Shown one piece after another: positions 15 to 18,310 of a stretch of DNA of 64,000 nucleotides; positions within the stretch are counted from its first letter, which is position 1; every line of letters begins with the position of its first letter. The notes under the pieces were generated by a model that saw only the letters and a program-made list of their open reading frames with translations, had not been told where the DNA came from and did no database searches. The position numbers were made by a program, and so were the translations under genes. The stretch comes from Odontesthes bonariensis. Lineage: Eukaryota; Chordata; Actinopteri; Atheriniformes; Atherinopsidae. Location of the stretch: contig NC_134516.1 in the NCBI RefSeq assembly GCF_027942865.1, positions 26,295,822 to 26,359,821 on the forward strand, read 5' to 3'.

Positions 15-134
15 GCTTACGGCCACACCGCCCTGAACACGCCCGATCTCGTCCGATCTCGGAAGCCAAGCAGGGTCGGGCCTGGTTAGTACTTGGATGG
101 GAGACCGCTTGGGAATACCAGGTGCTGTAAGCTT
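15..134 (+). rRNA. 5S: 5S rRNA gene, type A, unit 1 (reference copy)
   Basis: This 120-nt gene encodes 5S rRNA, the small RNA of the large ribosomal subunit, made by RNA polymerase III with TFIIIA and bound by ribosomal proteins uL18 and uL5. It is recognised from vertebrate 5S sequence over its whole length: GCTTAC at 1-6 pairs with GTAAGC at 113-118 (helix I), C17-G21 pairs with C57-G61 (helix II), and the conserved A49-A50 and C63 bulges are present. Against the usual vertebrate sequence it has G16, C53 and T95; G16 and T95 turn pairs with U62 and G81 into G-U wobbles, so the fold is kept. It ends in a run of six T. Only 14 bp of its 5' flank lies in the window. The spacer base 42 bp past the gene is T. 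Confidence 0.96.
64..111 (+). promoter_or_regulatory. Internal control region of type A 5S (box A, intermediate element, box C)
   Basis: By the Xenopus 5S numbering, box A (gene 50-64) lies at 64-78, the intermediate element (67-72, CCTGGT) at 81-86 and box C (80-97) at 94-111. These are the TFIIIA contact regions. Box A differs from the common vertebrate form only by C53, and box C by T95. The same arrangement is found in all 72 A genes; C92T in unit 40 lies inside box C. Confidence 0.85.
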
Positions 135-138
135 TTTT
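133..138 (+). terminator. Pol III terminator of type A 5S (T6)
   Basis: Six T begin at gene position 119 and are followed by a pyrimidine tract to 149. Four or more T suffice for vertebrate Pol III, so this is a strong terminator. I saw no copy with a shortened T run. Confidence 0.9.
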
Positions 139-430
139 CTCTTCTCTCTGCGGCCTGCATGTAACATCTGACCATTACCGTGTGCCACACAGACACCAGG
201 AAGTTAACCAGCTTGGGCTGCTGCTGATTGGTTGGCAGACACCTCTGTTTCTGTTTGGCTCTCAGTCTCCATGTTGCTGATCCTGGATCTGCTGAGATGT
301 CCCAGGCCATTGTTGGCTTTGATCCTCATACATTTAACTTTGTCCTCAGAAAGGACAAGTTCCAAAAAGTCAAACAGGGACTAGTTTTGCATTTGACGTA
401 GCCAAACTGCATGCGCCTGGAGAAGCCAAA
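135..430. other. Tail-to-tail spacer (296 bp), unit 1 exemplar
   Basis: This spacer separates the 3' ends of the convergent A and B genes. After the T run it holds a pyrimidine-rich tract, a GCTGCTGCTG stretch near 217-226 and a short hairpin at 340-358. I see no tRNA, snRNA, transposon or coding signal. The only common variant is T or C at 176 (42 bp past the A gene); unit 5 has a private C to T at 3865. Confidence 0.9.
340..358. repeat. Small inverted repeat in the tail-to-tail spacer
   Basis: TTGTCCT and AGGACAA form a 7-bp stem around the loop CAGAA. It appears unchanged in every unit read. It lies past the terminators of both genes, so a role in RNA processing is not obvious. Confidence 0.6.
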
Positions 431-437
431 AGGCTTA
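424..437 (-). terminator. Pol III terminator of type B 5S (T4 within a short inverted repeat)
   Basis: Read on the minus strand, the B gene ends AAGCC, then TTTT (428-431), then GGCTT. The T run is four long, the minimum for vertebrate Pol III and weaker than the T6 of type A. AAGCC and GGCTT are complementary, so a read-through RNA could pair across the U run. The arrangement arises from C119, where type A has T. Confidence 0.75.
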
Positions 438-550
438 CAGCACCTGGTATTCCCAGGCGGTCTCCCATCCAAGTACTAACCAGGGCCGACTCTGCTTGGC
501 TTCTGAGATCTGACGAGATCAGGCGTGTTCAGGGTGGTGTGGCCGTAAGC
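431..550 (-). rRNA. 5S: 5S rRNA gene, type B, unit 1 (G66C allele)
   Basis: This is a second full-length 120-nt 5S gene in inverted orientation. It differs from type A at seven fixed sites: A16, T30, A40, A47, A60, C95 and C119. T30 with A47 replaces the C30-G47 pair of helix III by U-A, a compensatory change; A60 makes a C-A mismatch with C18 in helix II and lies in box A. It has its own TATAAA near -30, the internal control elements and a T4 terminator, so it looks able to be transcribed. It could instead be a decaying paralogue. This copy also has C at gene position 66 (485 on the plus strand), where most B copies have G. The upstream palindrome loop base is A. Confidence 0.88.
454..501 (-). 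promoter_or_regulatory. Internal control region of type B 5S
   Basis: Box A (gene 50-64) maps to 487-501, the intermediate element (67-72) to 479-484 and box C (80-97) to 454-471. Box C has the common vertebrate C95. Box A carries A60, the one B-specific change inside a TFIIIA contact region. Confidence 0.8.
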
Positions 551-575
551 CAGCAATGGAATCACAAACCAGCTC

Positions 576-581
576 TTTATA
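576..581 (-). promoter_or_regulatory. TATA-like element of type B 5S
   Basis: TATAAA on the minus strand at -31 to -26 from the B start. It is a closer TATA match than the A element and is unchanged in every complete unit read. Confidence 0.75.
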
Positions 582-599
582 GATTCTGAAACAGAATCT
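581..599. repeat. Palindrome upstream of the type B TATA element
   Basis: AGATTCTG and CAGAATCT form a perfect 8-bp inverted repeat around three bases, at -32 to -50 from the B start, abutting the TATA element. The central loop base is A or G between units, but the arms are broken only in unit 3 (2376) and unit 53 (47102). Confidence 0.8.
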
Positions 600-879
600 G
601 TTATTGTATTCCGACTTGTAAAATAGAACTATACTGTTTAGAGAAGACGCAGTTTATGAGCATGTCGTGGGATTGAGCTTCCCTGGTTTCTCTATATGAC
701 AACGGACACAAAACTACACACAGGGAACAGAGGCTTTTGACAGACACTAAGTTATCTGAGAGTCCCATTTTCAGCTGCAAAGAACAATCACATCAGGGAA
801 GTCAACGTGCAGGCTCAACAGCAGCCTCTCAAGCCAGCTCTCTGGTAAAAATAGGGGAAACGTATGGTTCCAGCACCCA

Positions 880-884
880 TATAA
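880..884 (+). promoter_or_regulatory. TATA-like element of type A 5S (first complete copy, before unit 2)
   Basis: TATAA at -29 to -25 from the A start at 909. A second AT-rich stretch (TATAT) follows at -22 to -18. In nine units a C to T change at -31 extends the element to TATATAA. Confidence 0.7.
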
Positions 885-895
885 CATATATTTGT

Positions 896-908
896 CACAG
901 GGACTGTG
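896..908. repeat. Short inverted repeat abutting the type A start
   Basis: CACAG, GGA, CTGTG occupies -13 to -1 of the A gene and ends exactly at the first base of the RNA. It is present before every A gene, and also at 2-14. Confidence 0.6.
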
Positions 909-1028
909 GCTTACGGCCACACCGCCCTGAACACGCCCGATCTCGTCCGATCTCGGAAGCCAAGCAGGGTCGGGCCTGGTTAGTACTTGGATGGGAGACC
1001 GCTTGGGAATACCAGGTGCTGTAAGCTT
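909..1028 (+). rRNA. 5S: 5S rRNA gene, type A, unit 2
   Basis: Identical to the unit 1 copy. Site key for later entries: upstream haplotype gives the bases at -168, -129, -103 and -31; downstream gives the base 42 bp past the gene. Here upstream CACC, downstream C. Confidence 0.96.
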
Positions 1029-1324
1029 TTTTCTCTTCTCTCTGCGGCCTGCATGTAACATCTGACCATCACCGTGTGCCACACAGACACCAGGAAGTTA
1101 ACCAGCTTGGGCTGCTGCTGATTGGTTGGCAGACACCTCTGTTTCTGTTTGGCTCTCAGTCTCCATGTTGCTGATCCTGGATCTGCTGAGATGTCCCAGG
1201 CCATTGTTGGCTTTGATCCTCATACATTTAACTTTGTCCTCAGAAAGGACAAGTTCCAAAAAGTCAAACAGGGACTAGTTTTGCATTTGACGTAGCCAAA
1301 CTGCATGCGCCTGGAGAAGCCAAA

Positions 1325-1444
1325 AGGCTTACAGCACCTGGTATTCCCAGGCGGTCTCCCATCCAAGTACTAACCAGGCCCGACTCTGCTTGGCTTCTGA
1401 GATCTGACGAGATCAGGCGTGTTCAGGGTGGTGTGGCCGTAAGC
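1325..1444 (-). rRNA. 5S: 5S rRNA gene, type B, unit 2 (reference B)
   Basis: Reference B sequence with G66, C104 and G7. Palindrome loop base G (plus strand). Confidence 0.88.
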
Positions 1445-1802
1445 CAGCAATGGAATCACAAACCAGCTCTTTATAGATTCTGAGACAGAATCTGTTATTG
1501 TATTCCGACTTGTAAAATAGAACTATACTGTTTAGAGAAGACGCAGTTTATGAGCATGTCGTGGGATTGAGCTTCCCTGGTTTCTCTATATGACAACGGA
1601 CACAAAACTACACACAGGGAACAGAGGCTTTTGACAGACACTAAGTTATCTGAGAGTCCCATTTTCAGCTGCAAAGAACAATCACATCAGGGAAGTCAAC
1701 GTGCAGGCTCAACAGCAGCCTCTCAAGCCAGCTCTCTGGTAAAAATAGGGGAAACGTATGGTTCCAGCACCCATATAACATATATTTGTCACAGGGACTG
1801 TG

Positions 1803-1922
1803 GCTTACGGCCACACCGCCCTGAACACGCCCGATCTCGTCCGATCTCGGAAGCCAAGCAGGGTCGGGCCTGGTTAGTACTTGGATGGGAGACCGCTTGG
1901 GAATACCAGGTGCTGTAAGCTT
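1803..1922 (+). rRNA. 5S: 5S rRNA gene, type A, unit 3
   Basis: Identical to unit 1. Upstream CACC, downstream T. Confidence 0.96.
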
Positions 1923-2218
1923 TTTTCTCTTCTCTCTGCGGCCTGCATGTAACATCTGACCATTACCGTGTGCCACACAGACACCAGGAAGTTAACCAGC
2001 TTGGGCTGCTGCTGATTGGTTGGCAGACACCTCTGTTTCTGTTTGGCTCTCAGTCTCCATGTTGCTGATCCTGGATCTGCTGAGATGTCCCAGGCCATTG
2101 TTGGCTTTGATCCTCATACATTTAACTTTGTCCTCAGAAAGGACAAGTTCCAAAAAGTCAAACAGGGACTAGTTTTGCATTTGACGTAGCCAAACTGCAT
2201 GCGCCTGGAGAAGCCAAA

Positions 2219-2338
2219 AGGCTTACAGCACCTGGTATTCCCAGGCGGTCTCCCATCCAAGTACTAACCAGGCCCGACTCTGCTTGGCTTCTGAGATCTG
2301 ACGAGATCAGGCGTGTTCAGGGTGGTGTGGCCGTAAGC
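2219..2338 (-). rRNA. 5S: 5S rRNA gene, type B, unit 3
   Basis: Reference B. Palindrome loop G; the palindrome arm is broken by G to A at 2376. Confidence 0.87.
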
Positions 2339-2696
2339 CAGCAATGGAATCACAAACCAGCTCTTTATAGATTCTAAGACAGAATCTGTTATTGTATTCC
2401 GACTTGTAAAATAGAACTATACTGTTTAGAGAAGACGCAGTTTATGAGCATGTCGTGGGATTGAGCTTCCCTGGTTTCTCTATATGACAACGGACACAAA
2501 ACTACACACAGGGAACAGAGGCTTTTGACAGACACTAAGTTATCTGAGAGTCCCATTTTCAGCTGCAAAGAACAATCACATCAGGGAAGTCAATGTGCAG
2601 GCTCAACAGCAGCCTCTCAAGCCAGCTCTCTGGTAAAAATAGGGGAAACGTATGGTTCCAGCACCTATATAACATATATTTGTCACAGGGACTGTG

Positions 2697-2816
2697 GCTT
2701 ACGGCCACACCGCCCTGAACACGCCCGATCTCGTCCGATCTCGGAAGCCAAGCAGGGTCGGGCCTGGTTAGTACTTGGATGGGAGACCGCTTGGGAATAC
2801 CAGGTGCTGTAAGCTT
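2697..2816 (+). rRNA. 5S: 5S rRNA gene, type A, unit 4
   Basis: Identical to unit 1. Upstream CATT, a recombinant form (C at -168 with T at -103 and -31); downstream T. Confidence 0.96.
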
Positions 2817-3112
2817 TTTTCTCTTCTCTCTGCGGCCTGCATGTAACATCTGACCATTACCGTGTGCCACACAGACACCAGGAAGTTAACCAGCTTGGGC
2901 TGCTGCTGATTGGTTGGCAGACACCTCTGTTTCTGTTTGGCTCTCAGTCTCCATGTTGCTGATCCTGGATCTGCTGAGATGTCCCAGGCCATTGTTGGCT
3001 TTGATCCTCATACATTTAACTTTGTCCTCAGAAAGGACAAGTTCCAAAAAGTCAAACAGGGACTAGTTTTGCATTTGACGTAGCCAAACTGCATGCGCCT
3101 GGAGAAGCCAAA

Positions 3113-3232
3113 AGGCTTACAGCACCTGGTATTCCCAGGCGGTCTCCCATCCAAGTACTAACCAGGCCCGACTCTGCTTGGCTTCTGAGATCTGACGAGA
3201 TCAGGCGTGTTCAGGGTGGTGTGGCCGTAAGC
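3113..3232 (-). rRNA. 5S: 5S rRNA gene, type B, unit 4
   Basis: Reference B. Palindrome loop A. Confidence 0.88.
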
Positions 3233-3590
3233 CAGCAATGGAATCACAAACCAGCTCTTTATAGATTCTGAAACAGAATCTGTTATTGTATTCCGACTTG
3301 TAAAATAGAACTATACTGTTTAGAGAAGACGCAGTTTATGAGCATGTCGTGGGATTGAGCTTCCCTGGTTTCTCTATATGACAACGGACACAAAACTACA
3401 CACAGGGAACAGAGGCTTTTGACAGACACTAAGTTATCTGAGAGTCCCATTTTCAGCTGCAAAGAACAATCACATCAGGGAAGTCAACGTGCAGGCTCAA
3501 CAGCAGCCTCTCAAGCCAGCTCTCTGGTAAAAATAGGGGAAACGTATGGTTCCAGCACCCATATAACATATATTTGTCACAGGGACTGTG

Positions 3591-3710
3591 GCTTACGGCC
3601 ACACCGCCCTGAACACGCCCGATCTCGTCCGATCTCGGAAGCCAAGCAGGGTCGGGCCTGGTTAGTACTTGGATGGGAGACCGCTTGGGAATACCAGGTG
3701 CTGTAAGCTT
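3591..3710 (+). rRNA. 5S: 5S rRNA gene, type A, unit 5
   Basis: Identical to unit 1. Upstream CACC, downstream C; private C to T at 3865 in the following spacer. Confidence 0.96.
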
Positions 3711-4006
3711 TTTTCTCTTCTCTCTGCGGCCTGCATGTAACATCTGACCATCACCGTGTGCCACACAGACACCAGGAAGTTAACCAGCTTGGGCTGCTGC
3801 TGATTGGTTGGCAGACACCTCTGTTTCTGTTTGGCTCTCAGTCTCCATGTTGCTGATCCTGGATTTGCTGAGATGTCCCAGGCCATTGTTGGCTTTGATC
3901 CTCATACATTTAACTTTGTCCTCAGAAAGGACAAGTTCCAAAAAGTCAAACAGGGACTAGTTTTGCATTTGACGTAGCCAAACTGCATGCGCCTGGAGAA
4001 GCCAAA

Positions 4007-4126
4007 AGGCTTACAGCACCTGATATTCCCAGGCGGTCTCCCATCCAAGTACTAACCAGGCCCGACTCTGCTTGGCTTCTGAGATCTGACGAGATCAGGC
4101 GTGTTCAGGGTGGTGTGGCCGTAAGC
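4007..4126 (-). rRNA. 5S: 5S rRNA gene, type B, unit 5 (C104T)
   Basis: C104T, which changes G71-C104 of helix V to a G-U wobble. Palindrome loop G. Confidence 0.87.
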
Positions 4127-4484
4127 CAGCAATGGAATCACAAACCAGCTCTTTATAGATTCTGAGACAGAATCTGTTATTGTATTCCGACTTGTAAAAT
4201 AGAACTATACTGTTTAGAGAAGACGCAGTTTATGAGCATGTCGTGGGATTGAGCTTCCCTGGTTTCTCTATATGACAACGGACACAAAACTACACACAGG
4301 GAACAGAGGCTTTTGACAGACACTAAGTTATCTGAGAGTCCCATTTTCAGCTGCAGAGAACAATCACATCAGGGAAGTCAACGTGCAGGCTCAACAGCAG
4401 CCTCTCAAGCCAGCTCTCTGGTAAAAATAGGGGAAACGTATGGTTCCAGCACCCATATAACATATATTTGTCACAGGGACTGTG

Positions 4485-4604
4485 GCTTACGGCCACACCG
4501 CCCTGAACACGCCCGATCTCGTCCGATCTCGGAAGCCAAGCAGGGTCGGGCCTGGTTAGTACTTGGATGGGAGACCGCTTGGGAATACCAGGTGCTGTAA
4601 GCTT
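4485..4604 (+). rRNA. 5S: 5S rRNA gene, type A, unit 6
   Basis: Identical to unit 1. Upstream CGCC, downstream C. Confidence 0.96.
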
Positions 4605-4900
4605 TTTTCTCTTCTCTCTGCGGCCTGCATGTAACATCTGACCATCACCGTGTGCCACACAGACACCAGGAAGTTAACCAGCTTGGGCTGCTGCTGATTG
4701 GTTGGCAGACACCTCTGTTTCTGTTTGGCTCTCAGTCTCCATGTTGCTGATCCTGGATCTGCTGAGATGTCCCAGGCCATTGTTGGCTTTGATCCTCATA
4801 CATTTAACTTTGTCCTCAGAAAGGACAAGTTCCAAAAAGTCAAACAGGGACTAGTTTTGCATTTGACGTAGCCAAACTGCATGCGCCTGGAGAAGCCAAA

Positions 4901-5020
4901 AGGCTTACAGCACCTGGTATTCCCAGGCGGTCTCCCATCCAAGTACTAACCAGGCCCGACTCTGCTTGGCTTCTGAGATCTGACGAGATCAGGCGTGTTC
5001 AGGGTGGTGTGGCCGTAAGC
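4901..5020 (-). rRNA. 5S: 5S rRNA gene, type B, unit 6
   Basis: Reference B. Palindrome loop A. Confidence 0.88.
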
Positions 5021-5378
5021 CAGCAATGGAATCACAAACCAGCTCTTTATAGATTCTGAAACAGAATCTGTTATTGTATTCCGACTTGTAAAATAGAACT
5101 ATACTGTTTAGAGAAGACGCAGTTTATGAGCATGTCGTGGGATTGAGCTTCCCTGGTTTCTCTATATGACAACGGACACAAAACTACACACAGGGAACAG
5201 AGGCTTTTGACAGACACTAAGTTATCTGAGAGTCCCATTTTCAGCTGCAAAGAACAATCACATCAGGGAAGTCAACGTGCAGGCTCAACAGCAGCCTCTC
5301 AAGCCAGCTCTCTGGTAAAAATAGGGGAAACGTATGGTTCCAGCACCCATATAACATATATTTGTCACAGGGACTGTG

Positions 5379-5498
5379 GCTTACGGCCACACCGCCCTGA
5401 ACACGCCCGATCTCGTCCGATCTCGGAAGCCAAGCAGGGTCGGGCCTGGTTAGTACTTGGATGGGAGACCGCTTGGGAATACCAGGTGCTGTAAGCTT
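5379..5498 (+). rRNA. 5S: 5S rRNA gene, type A, unit 7
   Basis: Identical to unit 1. Upstream CACC, downstream T. Confidence 0.96.
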
Positions 5499-5794
5499 TT
5501 TTCTCTTCTCTCTGCGGCCTGCATGTAACATCTGACCATTACCGTGTGCCACACAGACACCAGGAAGTTAACCAGCTTGGGCTGCTGCTGATTGGTTGGC
5601 AGACACCTCTGTTTCTGTTTGGCTCTCAGTCTCCATGTTGCTGATCCTGGATCTGCTGAGATGTCCCAGGCCATTGTTGGCTTTGATCCTCATACATTTA
5701 ACTTTGTCCTCAGAAAGGACAAGTTCCAAAAAGTCAAACAGGGACTAGTTTTGCATTTGACGTAGCCAAACTGCATGCGCCTGGAGAAGCCAAA

Positions 5795-5914
5795 AGGCTT
5801 ACAGCACCTGGTATTCCCAGGCGGTCTCCCATCCAAGTACTAACCAGGGCCGACTCTGCTTGGCTTCTGAGATCTGACGAGATCAGGCGTGTTCAGGGTG
5901 GTGTGGCCGTAAGC
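5795..5914 (-). rRNA. 5S: 5S rRNA gene, type B, unit 7 (G66C)
   Basis: G66C. Palindrome loop A; A at the 658-equivalent spacer site (6022). Confidence 0.87.
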
Positions 5915-6272
5915 CAGCAATGGAATCACAAACCAGCTCTTTATAGATTCTGAAACAGAATCTGTTATTGTATTCCGACTTGTAAAATAGAACTATACTG
6001 TTTAGAGAAGACGCAGTTTATAAGCATGTCGTGGGATTGAGCTTCCCTGGTTTCTCTATATGACAACGGACACAAAACTACACACAGGGAACAGAGGCTT
6101 TTGACAGACACTAAGTTATCTGAGAGTCCCATTTTCAGCTGCAAAGAACAATCACATCAGGGAAGTCAACGTGCAGGCTCAACAGCAGCCTCTCAAGCCA
6201 GCTCTCTGGTAAAAATAGGGGAAACGTATGGTTCCAGCACCCATATAACATATATTTGTCACAGGGACTGTG

Positions 6273-6392
6273 GCTTACGGCCACACCGCCCTGAACACGC
6301 CCGATCTCGTCCGATCTCGGAAGCCAAGCAGGGTCGGGCCTGGTTAGTACTTGGATGGGAGACCGCTTGGGAATACCAGGTGCTGTAAGCTT
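6273..6392 (+). rRNA. 5S: 5S rRNA gene, type A, unit 8
   Basis: Identical to unit 1. Upstream CACC, downstream C. Confidence 0.96.
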
Positions 6393-6688
6393 TTTTCTCT
6401 TCTCTCTGCGGCCTGCATGTAACATCTGACCATCACCGTGTGCCACACAGACACCAGGAAGTTAACCAGCTTGGGCTGCTGCTGATTGGTTGGCAGACAC
6501 CTCTGTTTCTGTTTGGCTCTCAGTCTCCATGTTGCTGATCCTGGATCTGCTGAGATGTCCCAGGCCATTGTTGGCTTTGATCCTCATACATTTAACTTTG
6601 TCCTCAGAAAGGACAAGTTCCAAAAAGTCAAACAGGGACTAGTTTTGCATTTGACGTAGCCAAACTGCATGCGCCTGGAGAAGCCAAA

Positions 6689-6808
6689 AGGCTTACAGCA
6701 CCTGGTATTCCCAGGCGGTCTCCCATCCAAGTACTAACCAGGCCCGACTCTGCTTGGCTTCTGAGATCTGACGAGATCAGGCGTGTTCAGGGTGGTGTGG
6801 CCGTAAGC
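6689..6808 (-). rRNA. 5S: 5S rRNA gene, type B, unit 8
   Basis: Reference B. Palindrome loop G. Confidence 0.88.
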
Positions 6809-7166
6809 CAGCAATGGAATCACAAACCAGCTCTTTATAGATTCTGAGACAGAATCTGTTATTGTATTCCGACTTGTAAAATAGAACTATACTGTTTAGA
6901 GAAGACGCAGTTTATGAGCATGTCGTGGGATTGAGCTTCCCTGGTTTCTCTATATGACAACGGACACAAAACTACACACAGGGAACAGAGGCTTTTGACA
7001 GACACTAAGTTATCTGAGAGTCCCATTTTCAGCTGCAAAGAACAATCACATCAGGGAAGTCAACGTGCAGGCTCAACAGCAGCCTCTCAAGCCAGCTCTC
7101 TGGTAAAAATAGGGGAAACGTATGGTTCCAGCACCCATATAACATATATTTGTCACAGGGACTGTG

Positions 7167-7286
7167 GCTTACGGCCACACCGCCCTGAACACGCCCGATC
7201 TCGTCCGATCTCGGAAGCCAAGCAGGGTCGGGCCTGGTTAGTACTTGGATGGGAGACCGCTTGGGAATACCAGGTGCTGTAAGCTT
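7167..7286 (+). rRNA. 5S: 5S rRNA gene, type A, unit 9
   Basis: Identical to unit 1. Upstream CACC, downstream T. Confidence 0.96.
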
Positions 7287-7582
7287 TTTTCTCTTCTCTC
7301 TGCGGCCTGCATGTAACATCTGACCATTACCGTGTGCCACACAGACACCAGGAAGTTAACCAGCTTGGGCTGCTGCTGATTGGTTGGCAGACACCTCTGT
7401 TTCTGTTTGGCTCTCAGTCTCCATGTTGCTGATCCTGGATCTGCTGAGATGTCCCAGGCCATTGTTGGCTTTGATCCTCATACATTTAACTTTGTCCTCA
7501 GAAAGGACAAGTTCCAAAAAGTCAAACAGGGACTAGTTTTGCATTTGACGTAGCCAAACTGCATGCGCCTGGAGAAGCCAAA

Positions 7583-7702
7583 AGGCTTACAGCACCTGGT
7601 ATTCCCAGGCGGTCTCCCATCCAAGTACTAACCAGGCCCGACTCTGCTTGGCTTCTGAGATCTGACGAGATCAGGCGTGTTCAGGGTGGTGTGGCCGTAA
7701 GC
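7583..7702 (-). rRNA. 5S: 5S rRNA gene, type B, unit 9
   Basis: Reference B. Palindrome loop G. Confidence 0.88.
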
Positions 7703-8060
7703 CAGCAATGGAATCACAAACCAGCTCTTTATAGATTCTGAGACAGAATCTGTTATTGTATTCCGACTTGTAAAATAGAACTATACTGTTTAGAGAAGAC
7801 GCAGTTTATGAGCATGTCGTGGGATTGAGCTTCCCTGGTTTCTCTATATGACAACGGACACAAAACTACACACAGGGAACAGAGGCTTTTGACAGACACT
7901 AAGTTATCTGAGAGTCCCATTTTCAGCTGCAAAGAACAATCACATCAGGGAAGTCAACGTGCAGGCTCAACAGCAGCCTCTCAAGCCAGCTCTCTGGTAA
8001 AAATAGGGGAAACGTATGGTTCCAGCACCCATATAACATATATTTGTCACAGGGACTGTG

Positions 8061-8180
8061 GCTTACGGCCACACCGCCCTGAACACGCCCGATCTCGTCC
8101 GATCTCGGAAGCCAAGCAGGGTCGGGCCTGGTTAGTACTTGGATGGGAGACCGCTTGGGAATACCAGGTGCTGTAAGCTT
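8061..8180 (+). rRNA. 5S: 5S rRNA gene, type A, unit 10
   Basis: Identical to unit 1. Upstream CACC, downstream C. Confidence 0.96.
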
Positions 8181-8476
8181 TTTTCTCTTCTCTCTGCGGC
8201 CTGCATGTAACATCTGACCATCACCGTGTGCCACACAGACACCAGGAAGTTAACCAGCTTGGGCTGCTGCTGATTGGTTGGCAGACACCTCTGTTTCTGT
8301 TTGGCTCTCAGTCTCCATGTTGCTGATCCTGGATCTGCTGAGATGTCCCAGGCCATTGTTGGCTTTGATCCTCATACATTTAACTTTGTCCTCAGAAAGG
8401 ACAAGTTCCAAAAAGTCAAACAGGGACTAGTTTTGCATTTGACGTAGCCAAACTGCATGCGCCTGGAGAAGCCAAA

Positions 8477-8596
8477 AGGCTTACAGCACCTGATATTCCC
8501 AGGCGGTCTCCCATCCAAGTACTAACCAGGCCCGACTCTGCTTGGCTTCTGAGATCTGACGAGATCAGGCGTGTTCAGGGTGGTGTGGCCGTAAGC
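8477..8596 (-). rRNA. 5S: 5S rRNA gene, type B, unit 10 (C104T)
   Basis: C104T. Palindrome loop G. Confidence 0.87.
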
Positions 8597-8954
8597 CAGC
8601 AATGGAATCACAAACCAGCTCTTTATAGATTCTGAGACAGAATCTGTTATTGTATTCCGACTTGTAAAATAGAACTATACTGTTTAGAGAAGACGCAGTT
8701 TATGAGCATGTCGTGGGATTGAGCTTCCCTGGTTTCTCTATATGACAACGGACACAAAACTACACACAGGGAACAGAGGCTTTTGAGAGACACTAAGTTA
8801 TCTGAGAGTCCCATTTTCAGCTGCAAAGAACAATCACATCAGGGAAGTCAATGTGCAGGCTCAACAGCAGCCTCTCAAGCCAGCTCTCTGGTAAAAATAG
8901 GGGAAACGTATGGTTCCAGCACCTATATAACATATATTTGTCACAGGGACTGTG

Positions 8955-9074
8955 GCTTACGGCCACACCGCCCTGAACACGCCCGATCTCGTCCGATCTC
9001 GGAAGCCAAGCAGGGTCGGGCCTGGTTAGTACTTGGATGGGAGACCGCTTGGGAATACCAGGTGCTGTAAGCTT
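8955..9074 (+). rRNA. 5S: 5S rRNA gene, type A, unit 11
   Basis: Identical to unit 1. Upstream GATT, so the TATA element reads TATATAA; downstream T. Confidence 0.96.
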
Positions 9075-9370
9075 TTTTCTCTTCTCTCTGCGGCCTGCAT
9101 GTAACATCTGACCATTACCGTGTGCCACACAGACACCAGGAAGTTAACCAGCTTGGGCTGCTGCTGATTGGTTGGCAGACACCTCTGTTTCTGTTTGGCT
9201 CTCAGTCTCCATGTTGCTGATCCTGGATCTGCTGAGATGTCCCAGGCCATTGTTGGCTTTGATCCTCATACATTTAACTTTGTCCTCAGAAAGGACAAGT
9301 TCCAAAAAGTCAAACAGGGACTAGTTTTGCATTTGACGTAGCCAAACTGCATGCGCCTGGAGAAGCCAAA

Positions 9371-9490
9371 AGGCTTACAGCACCTGGTATTCCCAGGCGG
9401 TCTCCCATCCAAGTACTAACCAGGCCCGACTCTGCTTGGCTTCTGAGATCTGACAAGATCAGGCGTGTTCAGGGTGGTGTGGCCGTAAGC
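9371..9490 (-). rRNA. 5S: 5S rRNA gene, type B, unit 11 (C36T)
   Basis: Private C36T (9455 on the plus strand), a CpG transition in loop C. Palindrome loop A. Confidence 0.86.
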
Positions 9491-9848
9491 CAGCAATGGA
9501 ATCACAAACCAGCTCTTTATAGATTCTGAAACAGAATCTGTTATTGTATTCCGACTTGTAAAATAGAACTATACTGTTTAGAGAAGACGCAGTTTATGAG
9601 CATGTCGTGGGATTGAGCTTCCCTGGTTTCTCTATATGACAACGGACACAAAACTACACACAGGGAACAGAGGCTTTTGACAGACACTAAGTTATCTGAG
9701 AGTCCCATTTTCAGCTGCAAAGAACAATCACATCAGGGAAGTCAACGTGCAGGCTCAACAGCAGCCTCTCAAGCCAGCTCTCTGGTAAAAATAGGGGAAA
9801 CGTATGGTTCCAGCACCCATATAACATATATTTGTCACAGGGACTGTG

Positions 9849-9968
9849 GCTTACGGCCACACCGCCCTGAACACGCCCGATCTCGTCCGATCTCGGAAGC
9901 CAAGCAGGGTCGGGCCTGGTTAGTACTTGGATGGGAGACCGCTTGGGAATACCAGGTGCTGTAAGCTT
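9849..9968 (+). rRNA. 5S: 5S rRNA gene, type A, unit 12
   Basis: Identical to unit 1. Upstream CACC, downstream T. Confidence 0.96.
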
Positions 9969-10264
9969 TTTTCTCTTCTCTCTGCGGCCTGCATGTAACA
10001 TCTGACCATTACCGTGTGCCACACAGACACCAGGAAGTTAACCAGCTTGGGCTGCTGCTGATTGGTTGGCAGACACCTCTGTTTCTGTTTGGCTCTCAGT
10101 CTCCATGTTGCTGATCCTGGATCTGCTGAGATGTCCCAGGCCATTGTTGGCTTTGATCCTCATACATTTAACTTTGTCCTCAGAAAGGACAAGTTCCAAA
10201 AAGTCAAACAGGGACTAGTTTTGCATTTGACGTAGCCAAACTGCATGCGCCTGGAGAAGCCAAA

Positions 10265-10384
10265 AGGCTTACAGCACCTGGTATTCCCAGGCGGTCTCCC
10301 ATCCAAGTACTAACCAGGCCCGACTCTGCTTGGCTTCTGAGATCTGACGAGATCAGGCGTGTTCAGGGTGGTGTGGCTGTAAGC
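10265..10384 (-). rRNA. 5S: 5S rRNA gene, type B, unit 12 (G7A)
   Basis: G7A (10378), turning the G7-U112 wobble of helix I into A-U. Linked to T at 10548 (714-equivalent). Palindrome loop G. Confidence 0.87.
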
Positions 10385-10742
10385 CAGCAATGGAATCACA
10401 AACCAGCTCTTTATAGATTCTGAGACAGAATCTGTTATTGTATTCCGACTTGTAAAATAGAACTATACTGTTTAGAGAAGACGCAGTTTATGAGCATGTC
10501 GTGGGATTGAGCTTCCCTGGTTTCTCTATATGACAACGGACACAAAATTACACACAGGGAACAGAGGCTTTTGAGAGACACTAAGTTATCTGAGAGTCCC
10601 ATTTTCAGCTGCAGAGAACAATCACATCAGGGAAGTCAACGTGCAGGCTCAACAGCAGCCTCTCAAGCCAGCTCTCTGGTAAAAATAGGGGAAACGTATG
10701 GTTCCAGCACCCATATAACATATATTTGTCACAGGGACTGTG

Positions 10743-10862
10743 GCTTACGGCCACACCGCCCTGAACACGCCCGATCTCGTCCGATCTCGGAAGCCAAGCA
10801 GGGTCGGGCCTGGTTAGTACTTGGATGGGAGACCGCTTGGGAATACCAGGTGCTGTAAGCTT
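10743..10862 (+). rRNA. 5S: 5S rRNA gene, type A, unit 13
   Basis: Identical to unit 1. Upstream GGCC, downstream C. Confidence 0.96.
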
Positions 10863-11158
10863 TTTTCTCTTCTCTCTGCGGCCTGCATGTAACATCTGAC
10901 CATCACCGTGTGCCACACAGACACCAGGAAGTTAACCAGCTTGGGCTGCTGCTGATTGGTTGGCAGACACCTCTGTTTCTGTTTGGCTCTCAGTCTCCAT
11001 GTTGCTGATCCTGGATCTGCTGAGATGTCCCAGGCCATTGTTGGCTTTGATCCTCATACATTTAACTTTGTCCTCAGAAAGGACAAGTTCCAAAAAGTCA
11101 AACAGGGACTAGTTTTGCATTTGACGTAGCCAAACTGCATGCGCCTGGAGAAGCCAAA

Positions 11159-11278
11159 AGGCTTACAGCACCTGGTATTCCCAGGCGGTCTCCCATCCAA
11201 GTACTAACCAGGGCCGACTCTGCTTGGCTTCTGAGATCTGACGAGATCAGGCGTGTTCAGGGTGGTGTGGCCGTAAGC
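11159..11278 (-). rRNA. 5S: 5S rRNA gene, type B, unit 13 (G66C)
   Basis: G66C. Palindrome loop A. Confidence 0.87.
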
Positions 11279-11636
11279 CAGCAATGGAATCACAAACCAG
11301 CTCTTTATAGATTCTGAAACAGAATCTGTTATTGTATTCCGACTTGTAAAATAGAACTATACTGTTTAGAGAAGACGCAGTTTATGAGCATGTCGTGGGA
11401 TTGAGCTTCCCTGGTTTCTCTATATGACAACGGACACAAAACTACACACAGGGAACAGAGGCTTTTGACAGACACTAAGTTATCTGAGAGTCCCATTTTC
11501 AGCTGCAAAGAACAATCACATCAGGGAAGTCAACGTGCAGGCTCAACAGCAGCCTCTCAAGCCAGCTCTCTGGTAAAAATAGGGGAAACGTATGGTTCCA
11601 GCACCCATATAACATATATTTGTCACAGGGACTGTG

Positions 11637-11756
11637 GCTTACGGCCACACCGCCCTGAACACGCCCGATCTCGTCCGATCTCGGAAGCCAAGCAGGGTCG
11701 GGCCTGGTTAGTACTTGGATGGGAGACCGCTTGGGAATACCAGGTGCTGTAAGCTT
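11637..11756 (+). rRNA. 5S: 5S rRNA gene, type A, unit 14
   Basis: Identical to unit 1. Upstream CACC, downstream T. Confidence 0.96.
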
Positions 11757-12052
11757 TTTTCTCTTCTCTCTGCGGCCTGCATGTAACATCTGACCATTAC
11801 CGTGTGCCACACAGACACCAGGAAGTTAACCAGCTTGGGCTGCTGCTGATTGGTTGGCAGACACCTCTGTTTCTGTTTGGCTCTCAGTCTCCATGTTGCT
11901 GATCCTGGATCTGCTGAGATGTCCCAGGCCATTGTTGGCTTTGATCCTCATACATTTAACTTTGTCCTCAGAAAGGACAAGTTCCAAAAAGTCAAACAGG
12001 GACTAGTTTTGCATTTGACGTAGCCAAACTGCATGCGCCTGGAGAAGCCAAA

Positions 12053-12172
12053 AGGCTTACAGCACCTGGTATTCCCAGGCGGTCTCCCATCCAAGTACTA
12101 ACCAGGCCCGACTCTGCTTGGCTTCTGAGATCTGACGAGATCAGGCGTGTTCAGGGTGGTGTGGCCGTAAGC
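12053..12172 (-). rRNA. 5S: 5S rRNA gene, type B, unit 14
   Basis: Reference B. Palindrome loop A. Confidence 0.88.
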
Positions 12173-12530
12173 CAGCAATGGAATCACAAACCAGCTCTTT
12201 ATAGATTCTGAAACAGAATCTGTTATTGTATTCCGACTTGTAAAATAGAACTATACTGTTTAGAGAAGACGCAGTTTATGAGCATGTCGTGGGATTGAGC
12301 TTCCCTGGTTTCTCTATATGACAACGGACACAAAACTACACACAGGGAACAGAGGCTTTTGACAGACACTAAGTTATCTGAGAGTCCCATTTTCAGCTGC
12401 AAAGAACAATCACATCAGGGAAGTCAACGTGCAGGCTCAACAGCAGCCTCTCAAGCCAGCTCTCTGGTAAAAATAGGGGAAACGTATGGTTCCAGCACCC
12501 ATATAACATATATTTGTCACAGGGACTGTG

Positions 12531-12650
12531 GCTTACGGCCACACCGCCCTGAACACGCCCGATCTCGTCCGATCTCGGAAGCCAAGCAGGGTCGGGCCTG
12601 GTTAGTACTTGGATGGGAGACCGCTTGGGAATACCAGGTGCTGTAAGCTT
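12531..12650 (+). rRNA. 5S: 5S rRNA gene, type A, unit 15
   Basis: Identical to unit 1. Upstream CACC, downstream C. Confidence 0.96.
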
Positions 12651-12946
12651 TTTTCTCTTCTCTCTGCGGCCTGCATGTAACATCTGACCATCACCGTGTG
12701 CCACACAGACACCAGGAAGTTAACCAGCTTGGGCTGCTGCTGATTGGTTGGCAGACACCTCTGTTTCTGTTTGGCTCTCAGTCTCCATGTTGCTGATCCT
12801 GGATCTGCTGAGATGTCCCAGGCCATTGTTGGCTTTGATCCTCATACATTTAACTTTGTCCTCAGAAAGGACAAGTTCCAAAAAGTCAAACAGGGACTAG
12901 TTTTGCATTTGACGTAGCCAAACTGCATGCGCCTGGAGAAGCCAAA

Positions 12947-13066
12947 AGGCTTACAGCACCTGATATTCCCAGGCGGTCTCCCATCCAAGTACTAACCAGG
13001 CCCGACTCTGCTTGGCTTCTGAGATCTGACGAGATCAGGCGTGTTCAGGGTGGTGTGGCCGTAAGC
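12947..13066 (-). rRNA. 5S: 5S rRNA gene, type B, unit 15 (C104T)
   Basis: C104T. Palindrome loop G. Confidence 0.87.
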
Positions 13067-13424
13067 CAGCAATGGAATCACAAACCAGCTCTTTATAGAT
13101 TCTGAGACAGAATCTGTTATTGTATTCCGACTTGTAAAATAGAACTATACTGTTTAGAGAAGACGCAGTTTATGAGCATGTCGTGGGATTGAGCTTCCCT
13201 GGTTTCTCTATATGACAACGGACACAAAACTACACACAGGGAACAGAGGCTTTTGACAGACACTAAGTTATCTGAGAGTCCCATTTTCAGCTGCAGAGAA
13301 CAATCACATCAGGGAAGTCAACGTGCAGGCTCAACAGCAGCCTCTCAAGCCAGCTCTCTGGTAAAAATAGGGGAAACGTATGGTTCCAGCACCCATATAA
13401 CATATATTTGTCACAGGGACTGTG

Positions 13425-13544
13425 GCTTACGGCCACACCGCCCTGAACACGCCCGATCTCGTCCGATCTCGGAAGCCAAGCAGGGTCGGGCCTGGTTAGT
13501 ACTTGGATGGGAGACCGCTTGGGAATACCAGGTGCTGTAAGCTT
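13425..13544 (+). rRNA. 5S: 5S rRNA gene, type A, unit 16
   Basis: Identical to unit 1. Upstream CGCC, downstream C. Confidence 0.96.
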
Positions 13545-13840
13545 TTTTCTCTTCTCTCTGCGGCCTGCATGTAACATCTGACCATCACCGTGTGCCACAC
13601 AGACACCAGGAAGTTAACCAGCTTGGGCTGCTGCTGATTGGTTGGCAGACACCTCTGTTTCTGTTTGGCTCTCAGTCTCCATGTTGCTGATCCTGGATCT
13701 GCTGAGATGTCCCAGGCCATTGTTGGCTTTGATCCTCATACATTTAACTTTGTCCTCAGAAAGGACAAGTTCCAAAAAGTCAAACAGGGACTAGTTTTGC
13801 ATTTGACGTAGCCAAACTGCATGCGCCTGGAGAAGCCAAA

Positions 13841-13960
13841 AGGCTTACAGCACCTGGTATTCCCAGGCGGTCTCCCATCCAAGTACTAACCAGGCCCGAC
13901 TCTGCTTGGCTTCTGAGATCTGACGAGATCAGGCGTGTTCAGGGTGGTGTGGCCGTAAGC
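13841..13960 (-). rRNA. 5S: 5S rRNA gene, type B, unit 16
   Basis: Reference B. Palindrome loop A. Confidence 0.88.
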
Positions 13961-14318
13961 CAGCAATGGAATCACAAACCAGCTCTTTATAGATTCTGAA
14001 ACAGAATCTGTTATTGTATTCCGACTTGTAAAATAGAACTATACTGTTTAGAGAAGACGCAGTTTATGAGCATGTCGTGGGATTGAGCTTCCCTGGTTTC
14101 TCTATATGACAACGGACACAAAACTACACACAGGGAACAGAGGCTTTTGACAGACACTAAGTTATCTGAGAGTCCCATTTTCAGCTGCAAAGAACAATCA
14201 CATCAGGGAAGTCAACGTGCAGGCTCAACAGCAGCCTCTCAAGCCAGCTCTCTGGTAAAAATAGGGGAAACGTATGGTTCCAGCACCCATATAACATATA
14301 TTTGTCACAGGGACTGTG

Positions 14319-14438
14319 GCTTACGGCCACACCGCCCTGAACACGCCCGATCTCGTCCGATCTCGGAAGCCAAGCAGGGTCGGGCCTGGTTAGTACTTGG
14401 ATGGGAGACCGCTTGGGAATACCAGGTGCTGTAAGCTT
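14319..14438 (+). rRNA. 5S: 5S rRNA gene, type A, unit 17
   Basis: Identical to unit 1. Upstream CACC, downstream T. Confidence 0.96.
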
Positions 14439-14734
14439 TTTTCTCTTCTCTCTGCGGCCTGCATGTAACATCTGACCATTACCGTGTGCCACACAGACAC
14501 CAGGAAGTTAACCAGCTTGGGCTGCTGCTGATTGGTTGGCAGACACCTCTGTTTCTGTTTGGCTCTCAGTCTCCATGTTGCTGATCCTGGATCTGCTGAG
14601 ATGTCCCAGGCCATTGTTGGCTTTGATCCTCATACATTTAACTTTGTCCTCAGAAAGGACAAGTTCCAAAAAGTCAAACAGGGACTAGTTTTGCATTTGA
14701 CGTAGCCAAACTGCATGCGCCTGGAGAAGCCAAA

Positions 14735-14854
14735 AGGCTTACAGCACCTGGTATTCCCAGGCGGTCTCCCATCCAAGTACTAACCAGGGCCGACTCTGCT
14801 TGGCTTCTGAGATCTGACGAGATCAGGCGTGTTCAGGGTGGTGTGGCCGTAAGC
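14735..14854 (-). rRNA. 5S: 5S rRNA gene, type B, unit 17 (G66C)
   Basis: G66C. Palindrome loop A; A at the 658-equivalent (14962). Confidence 0.87.
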
Positions 14855-15212
14855 CAGCAATGGAATCACAAACCAGCTCTTTATAGATTCTGAAACAGAA
14901 TCTGTTATTGTATTCCGACTTGTAAAATAGAACTATACTGTTTAGAGAAGACGCAGTTTATAAGCATGTCGTGGGATTGAGCTTCCCTGGTTTCTCTATA
15001 TGACAACGGACACAAAACTACACACAGGGAACAGAGGCTTTTGACAGACACTAAGTTATCTGAGAGTCCCATTTTCAGCTGCAAAGAACAATCACATCAG
15101 GGAAGTCAACGTGCAGGCTCAACAGCAGCCTCTCAAGCCAGCTCTCTGGTAAAAATAGGGGAAACGTATGGTTCCAGCACCCATATAACATATATTTGTC
15201 ACAGGGACTGTG

Positions 15213-15332
15213 GCTTACGGCCACACCGCCCTGAACACGCCCGATCTCGTCCGATCTCGGAAGCCAAGCAGGGTCGGGCCTGGTTAGTACTTGGATGGGA
15301 GACCGCTTGGGAATACCAGGTGCTGTAAGCTT
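15213..15332 (+). rRNA. 5S: 5S rRNA gene, type A, unit 18
   Basis: Identical to unit 1. Upstream CACC, downstream C. Confidence 0.96.
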
Positions 15333-15628
15333 TTTTCTCTTCTCTCTGCGGCCTGCATGTAACATCTGACCATCACCGTGTGCCACACAGACACCAGGAA
15401 GTTAACCAGCTTGGGCTGCTGCTGATTGGTTGGCAGACACCTCTGTTTCTGTTTGGCTCTCAGTCTCCATGTTGCTGATCCTGGATCTGCTGAGATGTCC
15501 CAGGCCATTGTTGGCTTTGATCCTCATACATTTAACTTTGTCCTCAGAAAGGACAAGTTCCAAAAAGTCAAACAGGGACTAGTTTTGCATTTGACGTAGC
15601 CAAACTGCATGCGCCTGGAGAAGCCAAA

Positions 15629-15748
15629 AGGCTTACAGCACCTGGTATTCCCAGGCGGTCTCCCATCCAAGTACTAACCAGGCCCGACTCTGCTTGGCTT
15701 CTGAGATCTGACGAGATCAGGCGTGTTCAGGGTGGTGTGGCCGTAAGC
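15629..15748 (-). rRNA. 5S: 5S rRNA gene, type B, unit 18
   Basis: Reference B. Palindrome loop G. Confidence 0.88.
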
Positions 15749-16106
15749 CAGCAATGGAATCACAAACCAGCTCTTTATAGATTCTGAGACAGAATCTGTT
15801 ATTGTATTCCGACTTGTAAAATAGAACTATACTGTTTAGAGAAGACGCAGTTTATGAGCATGTCGTGGGATTGAGCTTCCCTGGTTTCTCTATATGACAA
15901 CGGACACAAAACTACACACAGGGAACAGAGGCTTTTGACAGACACTAAGTTATCTGAGAGTCCCATTTTCAGCTGCAAAGAACAATCACATCAGGGAAGT
16001 CAACGTGCAGGCTCAACAGCAGCCTCTCAAGCCAGCTCTCTGGTAAAAATAGGGGAAACGTATGGTTCCAGCACCCATATAACATATATTTGTCACAGGG
16101 ACTGTG

Positions 16107-16226
16107 GCTTACGGCCACACCGCCCTGAACACGCCCGATCTCGTCCGATCTCGGAAGCCAAGCAGGGTCGGGCCTGGTTAGTACTTGGATGGGAGACCGC
16201 TTGGGAATACCAGGTGCTGTAAGCTT
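16107..16226 (+). rRNA. 5S: 5S rRNA gene, type A, unit 19
   Basis: Identical to unit 1. Upstream CACC, downstream T. Confidence 0.96.
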
Positions 16227-16522
16227 TTTTCTCTTCTCTCTGCGGCCTGCATGTAACATCTGACCATTACCGTGTGCCACACAGACACCAGGAAGTTAAC
16301 CAGCTTGGGCTGCTGCTGATTGGTTGGCAGACACCTCTGTTTCTGTTTGGCTCTCAGTCTCCATGTTGCTGATCCTGGATCTGCTGAGATGTCCCAGGCC
16401 ATTGTTGGCTTTGATCCTCATACATTTAACTTTGTCCTCAGAAAGGACAAGTTCCAAAAAGTCAAACAGGGACTAGTTTTGCATTTGACGTAGCCAAACT
16501 GCATGCGCCTGGAGAAGCCAAA

Positions 16523-16642
16523 AGGCTTACAGCACCTGGTATTCCCAGGCGGTCTCCCATCCAAGTACTAACCAGGCCCGACTCTGCTTGGCTTCTGAGA
16601 TCTGACGAGATCAGGCGTGTTCAGGGTGGTGTGGCCGTAAGC
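16523..16642 (-). rRNA. 5S: 5S rRNA gene, type B, unit 19
   Basis: Reference B. Palindrome loop G. Confidence 0.88.
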
Positions 16643-17000
16643 CAGCAATGGAATCACAAACCAGCTCTTTATAGATTCTGAGACAGAATCTGTTATTGTA
16701 TTCCGACTTGTAAAATAGAACTATACTGTTTAGAGAAGACGCAGTTTATGAGCATGTCGTGGGATTGAGCTTCCCTGGTTTCTCTATATGACAACGGACA
16801 CAAAACTACACACAGGGAACAGAGGCTTTTGACAGACACTAAGTTATCTGAGAGTCCCATTTTCAGCTGCAAAGAACAATCACATCAGGGAAGTCAACGT
16901 GCAGGCTCAACAGCAGCCTCTCAAGCCAGCTCTCTGGTAAAAATAGGGGAAACGTATGGTTCCAGCACCCATATAACATATATTTGTCACAGGGACTGTG

Positions 17001-17120
17001 GCTTACGGCCACACCGCCCTGAACACGCCCGATCTCGTCCGATCTCGGAAGCCAAGCAGGGTCGGGCCTGGTTAGTACTTGGATGGGAGACCGCTTGGGA
17101 ATACCAGGTGCTGTAAGCTT
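17001..17120 (+). rRNA. 5S: 5S rRNA gene, type A, unit 20
   Basis: Identical to unit 1. Upstream CACC, downstream C. Confidence 0.96.
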
Positions 17121-17416
17121 TTTTCTCTTCTCTCTGCGGCCTGCATGTAACATCTGACCATCACCGTGTGCCACACAGACACCAGGAAGTTAACCAGCTT
17201 GGGCTGCTGCTGATTGGTTGGCAGACACCTCTGTTTCTGTTTGGCTCTCAGTCTCCATGTTGCTGATCCTGGATCTGCTGAGATGTCCCAGGCCATTGTT
17301 GGCTTTGATCCTCATACATTTAACTTTGTCCTCAGAAAGGACAAGTTCCAAAAAGTCAAACAGGGACTAGTTTTGCATTTGACGTAGCCAAACTGCATGC
17401 GCCTGGAGAAGCCAAA

Positions 17417-17536
17417 AGGCTTACAGCACCTGATATTCCCAGGCGGTCTCCCATCCAAGTACTAACCAGGCCCGACTCTGCTTGGCTTCTGAGATCTGAC
17501 GAGATCAGGCGTGTTCAGGGTGGTGTGGCCGTAAGC
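17417..17536 (-). rRNA. 5S: 5S rRNA gene, type B, unit 20 (C104T)
   Basis: C104T. Palindrome loop G. Confidence 0.87.
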
Positions 17537-17894
17537 CAGCAATGGAATCACAAACCAGCTCTTTATAGATTCTGAGACAGAATCTGTTATTGTATTCCGA
17601 CTTGTAAAATAGAACTATACTGTTTAGAGAAGACGCAGTTTATGAGCATGTCGTGGGATTGAGCTTCCCTGGTTTCTCTATATGACAACGGACACAAAAC
17701 TACACACAGGGAACAGAGGCTTTTGAGAGACACTAAGTTATCTGAGAGTCCCATTTTCAGCTGCAAAGAACAATCACATCAGGGAAGTCAATGTGCAGGC
17801 TCAACAGCAGCCTCTCAAGCCAGCTCTCTGGTAAAAATAGGGGAAACGTATGGTTCCAGCACCTATATAACATATATTTGTCACAGGGACTGTG

Positions 17895-18014
17895 GCTTAC
17901 GGCCACACCGCCCTGAACACGCCCGATCTCGTCCGATCTCGGAAGCCAAGCAGGGTCGGGCCTGGTTAGTACTTGGATGGGAGACCGCTTGGGAATACCA
18001 GGTGCTGTAAGCTT
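17895..18014 (+). rRNA. 5S: 5S rRNA gene, type A, unit 21
   Basis: Identical to unit 1. Upstream GATT (TATATAA form), downstream T. Confidence 0.96.
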
Positions 18015-18310
18015 TTTTCTCTTCTCTCTGCGGCCTGCATGTAACATCTGACCATTACCGTGTGCCACACAGACACCAGGAAGTTAACCAGCTTGGGCTG
18101 CTGCTGATTGGTTGGCAGACACCTCTGTTTCTGTTTGGCTCTCAGTCTCCATGTTGCTGATCCTGGATCTGCTGAGATGTCCCAGGCCATTGTTGGCTTT
18201 GATCCTCATACATTTAACTTTGTCCTCAGAAAGGACAAGTTCCAAAAAGTCAAACAGGGACTAGTTTTGCATTTGACGTAGCCAAACTGCATGCGCCTGG
18301 AGAAGCCAAA

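What the first reader, a model, noticed from the sequence alone, without database searches (positions are those of the whole stretch)
15..908. 5S rDNA unit with two 5S genes in opposite orientation
Most vertebrate 5S arrays are described as one gene per unit, all in the same direction. Here each 894-bp unit pairs a plus-strand gene with a minus-strand gene, both full length, in a regular head-to-head and tail-to-tail pattern kept through 72 units. This makes every head-to-head spacer a candidate bidirectional Pol III promoter and every tail-to-tail spacer a convergent termination zone.
Basis: partly seen in the sequence, partly recalled or inferred. Interest (0 to 1): 0.75.

Follow-up and report, generated by a model that had tools for sequence, protein, structure and literature searches.

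The report
Back-to-back paired 5S ribosomal RNA genes
A long tandem array in a probable fish genome carries two different 5S ribosomal RNA genes in opposite directions in each repeat, each with its own start and stop signals; inverted 5S copies are already reported in fish, so this looks like an unusually regular case rather than a new kind of thing.

Summary
Observation confirmed. Rfam's 5S model finds 72 plus-strand and 72 minus-strand genes (one cut by the window end) in strict alternation: 71 complete units, 69 of 894 bp and 2 of 904 bp. The two genes are different 5S types: seven positions differ, fixed in 72 plus and 71 full minus copies. Within the unit tested, similarity stops at the gene ends, so fold-back reads are unlikely. 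Each gene has its own TATAA (-29 and -31) and T run (T6 and T4) in 71 of 71 units; both boxes together occur in 1 of 20,000 spacer shuffles. So the head-to-head spacer holds two separate upstream elements, not evidently one bidirectional promoter. The plus gene looks like the main one (68 of 72 copies identical). The minus gene is looser (40 of 71) and has a broken helix-II pair, but keeps a compensated helix-III pair, U30-A47. I read it as probably transcribable and partly relaxed; pseudogene is the main rival. No expression data; species unidentified. Inverted 5S sequences and pseudogenes are already reported for Nile tilapia (title seen). New member of a known kind.

The parts
15..133 (+). 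plus-strand 5S rRNA gene (first of 72); 68 of 72 copies identical
   Evidence: RF00001, 112.1 bits, model 1-120; copy count
133..138 (+). T6 run at the 3' end of the plus gene, Pol III terminator-like, same length in 71 of 71 units
   Evidence: sequence, count
134..431 (.). tail-to-tail (convergent) spacer, 298 bp; 2 variable sites among the 69 units of 894 bp
428..431 (-). T4 run at the 3' end of the minus gene, Pol III terminator-like, same length in 71 of 71 units
   Evidence: sequence, count
432..550 (-). minus-strand 5S rRNA gene of a second, fixed sequence type (differs from plus at gene positions 16, 30, 40, 47, 60, 95, 119); 40 of 71 full copies identical to its major form
   Evidence: RF00001, 101.5 bits here, 106.4 bits in the commonest form; differences
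551..908 (.). head-to-head (divergent) spacer, 358 bp; 12 variable sites among the 69 units of 894 bp
577..581 (-). TATAA at -31 of the minus gene, the only TATAA on that strand of the consensus unit; kept in 71 of 71 units
880..884 (+). TATAA at -29 of the next plus gene, the only TATAA on that strand of the consensus unit; kept in 71 of 71 units
15..63508 (.). 71 complete units in tandem (69 of 894 bp, 2 of 904 bp), 24 distinct unit sequences, with repeated multi-unit blocks
39351..39479 (+). plus gene with a 10-bp tandem duplication, probably non-functional (inferred)
42937..43065 (+). second plus gene with the same 10-bp duplication

Best explanation
This is a vertebrate (most likely teleost) 5S rDNA array whose repeat unit holds two diverged 5S genes in opposite directions. 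Each gene is read on its own by RNA polymerase III, from its internal promoter with a TATA element about 30 bp upstream, and stops at its own T run. The plus gene is the principal 5S gene. The minus gene is an older, diverged copy that sits in the unit and is carried along with it; it is probably still transcribable but under weaker constraint. Unequal crossing-over between units spreads and homogenises the whole 894-bp unit, and does not mix the two genes. Shown here: layout, fixed differences, TATA and T-run positions, more identical copies in the plus than in the minus gene. Inferred: transcription, relative output, functional status, the exchange mechanism.
For: 72 plus and 72 minus Rfam hits in strict alternation. 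Seven fixed plus/minus differences with no exchanged copy in 72 plus and 71 full minus genes, while the 69 units of 894 bp differ from each other by 3.2 sites on average (maximum 12). TATAA at -29 (plus) and -31 (minus) in 71 of 71 units, the only TATAA on each strand of the consensus unit; of 20,000 dinucleotide shuffles of the head-to-head spacer, 155 gave a box at -33 to -25 of the plus gene, 159 of the minus gene and 1 both. PMC6529582 places the TATA element of crucian-carp 5S at -29, there modified to TAAA (passages). T6 and T4 runs in 71 of 71 units. The minus changes at 30 and 47 keep a helix-III pair, C-G to U-A. In the unit tested, similarity between the two genes ends about 2 nt upstream and 4 nt downstream of the gene. 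68 of 72 plus but 40 of 71 minus copies are identical to their major form.
Against: No expression data. Minus position 60 (box A) turns the helix-II pair C18-G60 into C-A; the predicted folding energy is -42.0 against -48.6 kcal/mol for plus, and the minimum-energy fold is no longer the 5S-like one of plus. Of six variable minus sites, two (66, 12 of 71; 105, 1 of 71) break a pair of the Rfam model, two keep it and two are unpaired. The contrast in number of variable sites (2 against 6 of 119) is not significant (p = 0.28), nor is minus against spacers (6 of 119 against 14 of 656, p = 0.11) or plus against spacers (p = 1.0), nor the share of non-singletons (0 of 2 against 3 of 6, p = 0.46); so weaker constraint on minus rests on copy counts, which related units inflate. 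U30 and A47 are both CpG-deamination-type changes, so the pair could have arisen by decay; 2 of 84 pairs of such changes are mutual partners. Both genes have G at -1, not the C called typical in PMC3342222. The plus gene is not plainly canonical either: carp primers quoted read A16, C30 and T40, so plus differs from carp at 16 and 40, and by recall its U95 (box C) is derived.
Confidence: 0.55

Rival explanations
1. The minus gene is a pseudogene: a once-active copy trapped in the unit, no longer making usable 5S RNA, and kept only because the whole unit is homogenised. This would match the inverted sequences and pseudogenes named in the title of the Nile tilapia paper.
For: The box-A change at 60 breaks a helix-II pair and the predicted 5S-like fold is lost. 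40 of 71 full minus copies are identical against 68 of 72 plus copies; three minus variants have reached 4, 13 and 12 of 71 copies. Minus has 5 CpG against 9 in plus.
Against: All 71 full copies span the model at 96.7-107.1 bits; own TATAA and T4 in 71 of 71 units; compensated pair 30-47; no insertion, deletion or truncation among the 71.
Confidence: 0.3
2. The two genes are a developmental pair: plus the somatic type, minus the oocyte (maternal) type, joined 1:1 in one unit instead of sitting in separate arrays.
For: Two fixed 5S types. Fish and frogs have oocyte and somatic types (PMC10138776, PMC12953832, PMC6562748, passages). By recall only, Xenopus laevis oocyte 5S also has U30 and A47 where the somatic type has C30 and G47.
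Against: No expression data. In the amphibians, fish and zebrafish described the two types lie in separate arrays. The Nototheniidae maternal 5S differs at 2, 23 and 112 with an unchanged internal control region, unlike here. The Xenopus match rests on memory and on CpG-prone sites.
Confidence: 0.12
3. The alternation is an assembly or read artefact (fold-back reads or template switching).
For: Arms of 125 nt, 94% complementary, 290 nt apart, could mislead an assembler; no raw reads could be examined.
Against: The two arms differ at seven fixed positions and their flanks do not match in the unit tested; 24 distinct unit sequences in a repeated multi-unit order, the longest repeated run of 5 units being reached in 1 of 500 order shuffles.
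Confidence: 0.03

Closest known systems
[quoted passage not shown] 2002, doi 10.1159/000068542; title seen in reference lists; content only recalled)
   Same: Fish 5S repeats that include inverted sequences and pseudogenes (from the title).
   Different: Unit length, spacers and regularity could not be compared; the paper is not held. By recall its inverted copy is described with a pseudogene, whereas here both copies are full length with TATAA and T run.
Pike (Esox) 5S rDNA with inverted blocks (PMC5437419, passages)
   Same: 5S genes in both directions at one locus, seen on PacBio reads (11 of 286 reads, 639 of 7,769 genes).
   Different: There whole blocks of head-to-tail tandems are inverted; here orientation alternates gene by gene inside each unit.
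NOR-5S gene of Nototheniidae, also in turtles and crocodiles (PMC10138776, passages and two sections)
   Same: A second 5S type, oppositely oriented to its neighbour genes, carried inside a tandem unit.
   Different: There the neighbours are the 45S rRNA genes, and transcript data point to ovary and early embryo.
Xenopus oocyte and somatic 5S types (passages in PMC6562748 and PMC12294053; base positions recalled)
   Same: Two 5S types in one genome; recalled U30/A47 in the oocyte type.
   Different: Types have different spacers and lie in separate arrays; an inverted pair unit is not mentioned in the passages seen.

Membership tests
5S rRNA gene (RF00001), plus copies | Full-length match to the 5S covariance model | tested here: met
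   72 of 72 span model 1-120 at 102.7-114.3 bits
5S rRNA gene (RF00001), minus copies | Full-length match to the 5S covariance model | tested here: met
   71 of 72 span model 1-120 at 96.7-107.1 bits; the other is cut by the window end
Functional Pol III 5S gene | Upstream TATA element near -29 | tested here: met
   TATAA at -29 and -31 in 71 of 71 units; -29 in crucian carp, there modified to TAAA (PMC6529582)
Functional Pol III 5S gene | T-run terminator at the 3' end | tested here: met
   T6 and T4 in 71 of 71 units
Functional Pol III 5S gene | C at position -1 (given in PMC3342222 for many 5S genes) | tested here: not met
   Both genes have G at -1 in the consensus unit; feature from passage
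Functional Pol III 5S gene | Conserved internal control region (box A 50-64, IE 67-72, box C 80-97) | tested here: inconclusive
   The two genes differ inside it at 60 (box A) and 95 (box C); box limits from PMC3342222; which state is ancestral at these two is recalled
Functional Pol III 5S gene | Transcribed and built into ribosomes | not testable with these tools
   No RNA data held
Oocyte/somatic 5S dual system | Tissue-specific expression of the two types | not testable with these tools
   No RNA data held
Tilapia-type unit with inverted 5S and pseudogene | Same unit and spacer sequence | not testable with these tools
   Paper and sequence not held; no vertebrate genome collection available; no genome held for the window

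The most novel reading that the evidence does not exclude
The unit couples a somatic-type and an oocyte-type 5S gene one to one, back to back, so that both developmental 5S types are amplified and homogenised together in a single array.
Probability: 0.12. Interest if true: 0.6.

Novelty: new member of a known kind. Interest (0 to 1): 0.35.

Why it matters
The array is a clean natural experiment on concerted evolution. Two inverted 5S paralogues 298 and 358 bp apart have stayed distinct in all 71 complete units, while whole units differ at about 0.4% of sites on average. If both genes are transcribed, one locus would make two 5S rRNA types in a fixed gene ratio, and tissue-specific 5S use could be read from a handful of diagnostic bases.

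Tried and rejected
Bidirectional Pol III promoter: set aside as unnecessary, since each gene has its own TATAA at the expected distance; not disproved.

Recent local inversion of a one-gene unit: not supported, because similarity between the genes does not extend into the flanks (one unit, ungapped extension, so gapped similarity could be missed).

Other RNA genes in the spacers (such as snRNAs, known to me from other fish 5S units): none, even at E up to 5 over one unit, and only 5S in the whole window at gathering thresholds.

Ongoing gene conversion between the two genes: none of the fixed differences is exchanged in 72 plus and 71 minus copies.

Statistical claim that the minus gene has more variable sites: direction seen, not significant (against plus p = 0.28, against spacers p = 0.11; non-singletons p = 0.46).

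Finding the same unit elsewhere: no whole genome is held for the window. A 21-base box-C core had 0 matches in viral contigs and in genome contigs, and distant-mode blastn of one unit found nothing in plasmids; the phage and E. coli collections were not searched. None of these is a vertebrate collection, so this says nothing about relatives. Species not identified.

Literature: ten searches were answered; the phrase 'inverted 5S' gave 0 papers in the held library. The tilapia papers are known only from reference lists. For the terms searched, the barnacle, toadfish, Plectorhinchus and stingray papers gave no passage on inverted pair units; I saw passages, not whole texts. I claim no absence from print beyond these searches.

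Full report
Check of the observation. The Rfam scan of the whole window returned 144 hits, all 5S rRNA: 72 on the plus and 72 on the minus strand, alternating from 15 to the end of the window. All 72 plus genes and 71 of 72 minus genes span the full model; the last minus gene is cut by the window end. Between successive plus starts there are 71 complete units, 69 of 894 bp and 2 of 904 bp. The two longer ones carry a 10-bp tandem duplication in the plus gene. The layout is plus gene 119 bp, tail-to-tail spacer 298 bp, minus gene 119 bp, head-to-head spacer 358 bp.

Two different genes. Comparing 72 plus copies (the 10-bp duplication removed in two) with 71 full minus copies gives seven fixed differences, at gene positions 16, 30, 40, 47, 60, 95 and 119, with no copy of either class carrying the other's base. 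The partial last minus gene carries the minus base at 47, 60 and 95. The 69 units of 894 bp differ from each other at 3.2 sites on average, 12 at most. So homogenisation acts on the unit, and no exchange between the two inverted genes is seen. In the unit tested, inverted similarity runs over 125 nt, the gene plus about 2 nt upstream and 4 nt downstream, at 94%; that search extends without gaps, so weak gapped similarity of the spacers is not excluded. This speaks against fold-back reads and against a recent simple inversion.

Signals. In the consensus unit TATAA occurs once on each strand, at -29 of the plus gene and -31 of the minus gene, and is kept in 71 of 71 units. Of 20,000 dinucleotide-preserving shuffles of the head-to-head spacer, 155 had TATAA at -33 to -25 of the plus gene, 159 of the minus gene, and 1 of both. 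PMC6529582 reports the TATA element of crucian-carp 5S at -29, there modified to TAAA (passages). Each gene ends in a T run, T6 and T4, in 71 of 71 units. Against this, both genes have G at -1, not the C described in PMC3342222. Since the boxes lie in flanks that show no similarity, their placement suggests that both genes are, or were, working Pol III genes. It also makes a single bidirectional promoter unnecessary.

State of the minus gene. Of the 34 pairs of the Rfam structure, the two genes differ at two: 30-47 (C-G in plus, U-A in minus; kept) and 18-60 (C-G in plus, C-A in minus; broken); a third, 25-52, is A-C in both. The minus RNA folds less well (-42.0 against -48.6 kcal/mol) and its minimum-energy fold is not that of plus; of the changes tried in silico (30, 47, both, 60) only the one at 60 restored it. 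Of the six variable minus sites two break a pair (66 and 105), two keep it (7 and 104) and two are unpaired; of the two variable plus sites one keeps its pair and one is unpaired. Within the array, 68 of 72 plus copies are identical, the other four being two singletons and the two duplications, against 40 of 71 minus copies. By number of variable sites the contrasts are not significant: plus against minus p = 0.28, minus against spacers p = 0.11, plus against spacers p = 1.0; non-singletons p = 0.46. Copy counts are inflated by shared descent of units, so they are suggestive only. Eight of 22 variants in the array are CpG-to-TpG/CpA changes, though the 894-bp unit has only 24 CpG sites, which suggests germ-line methylation; pike 5S is reported as heavily methylated (PMC5437419, abstract passage). 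The two changes of the compensated pair are of the same CpG type; 2 of 84 pairs of such changes, counted over seven CpGs, would be mutual partners, so the pairing is mild evidence for constraint. Polarity is partly documented: carp primers quoted read A16, C30 and T40, so at 16 the minus gene agrees with carp, at 30 the plus gene does, and at 40 neither; for 47, 60 and 95 I rely on recall. On balance I think the minus gene is transcribable but relaxed (0.55), with pseudogene (0.3) the main rival and an oocyte-type gene (0.12) the boldest reading.

Array dynamics. The 71 units have 24 distinct sequences. Multi-unit runs recur: a five-unit run at units 6-10 and 16-20, and four-unit runs 35 and 36 units apart. 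At a distance of ten units, 16 of the 59 pairs of 894-bp units compared are identical, the highest count among distances 1 to 14. The longest run is reached in 1 of 500 order shuffles. This fits block-wise unequal exchange (inferred).

Comparison with what is known. Two 5S types in one genome are common in fish and known in frogs (passages). Inverted 5S blocks are seen on PacBio reads in pike. Inverted sequences and pseudogenes are in the title of Martins et al. 2002 on Nile tilapia, seen in reference lists; its content I only recall. I could not identify the species: no genome is held and no vertebrate collection is available. The attribution to a teleost rests on my recall of fish 5S sequences. 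The window could even be from a cichlid, in which case the unit itself might already be described.

Verdict. A real, very regular array of inverted paired 5S genes with two fixed types; ordinary in kind, apparently uncommon in its regularity.

Noticed in passing
window 134-431 and 551-908, and the same spacers in the other units: The tail-to-tail spacer has fewer variable sites than the head-to-head spacer (2 of 298 against 12 of 358, Fisher p = 0.027, uncorrected), though neither holds another known RNA (one unit).
   Followed up: partly
window 15-63508: Unit haplotypes recur as multi-unit blocks about 10 and about 35-36 units apart, a possible trace of block-wise unequal exchange.
   Followed up: partly
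window 39351-39479 and 42937-43065: Two plus genes four units apart share an identical 10-bp tandem duplication of CCGATCTCGT, though their units differ elsewhere at three sites, which hints at exchange or conversion between units.
   Followed up: no
units throughout the window: 18 of 22 variants are transitions and 8 are CpG-type, suggesting a methylated array.
   Followed up: partly
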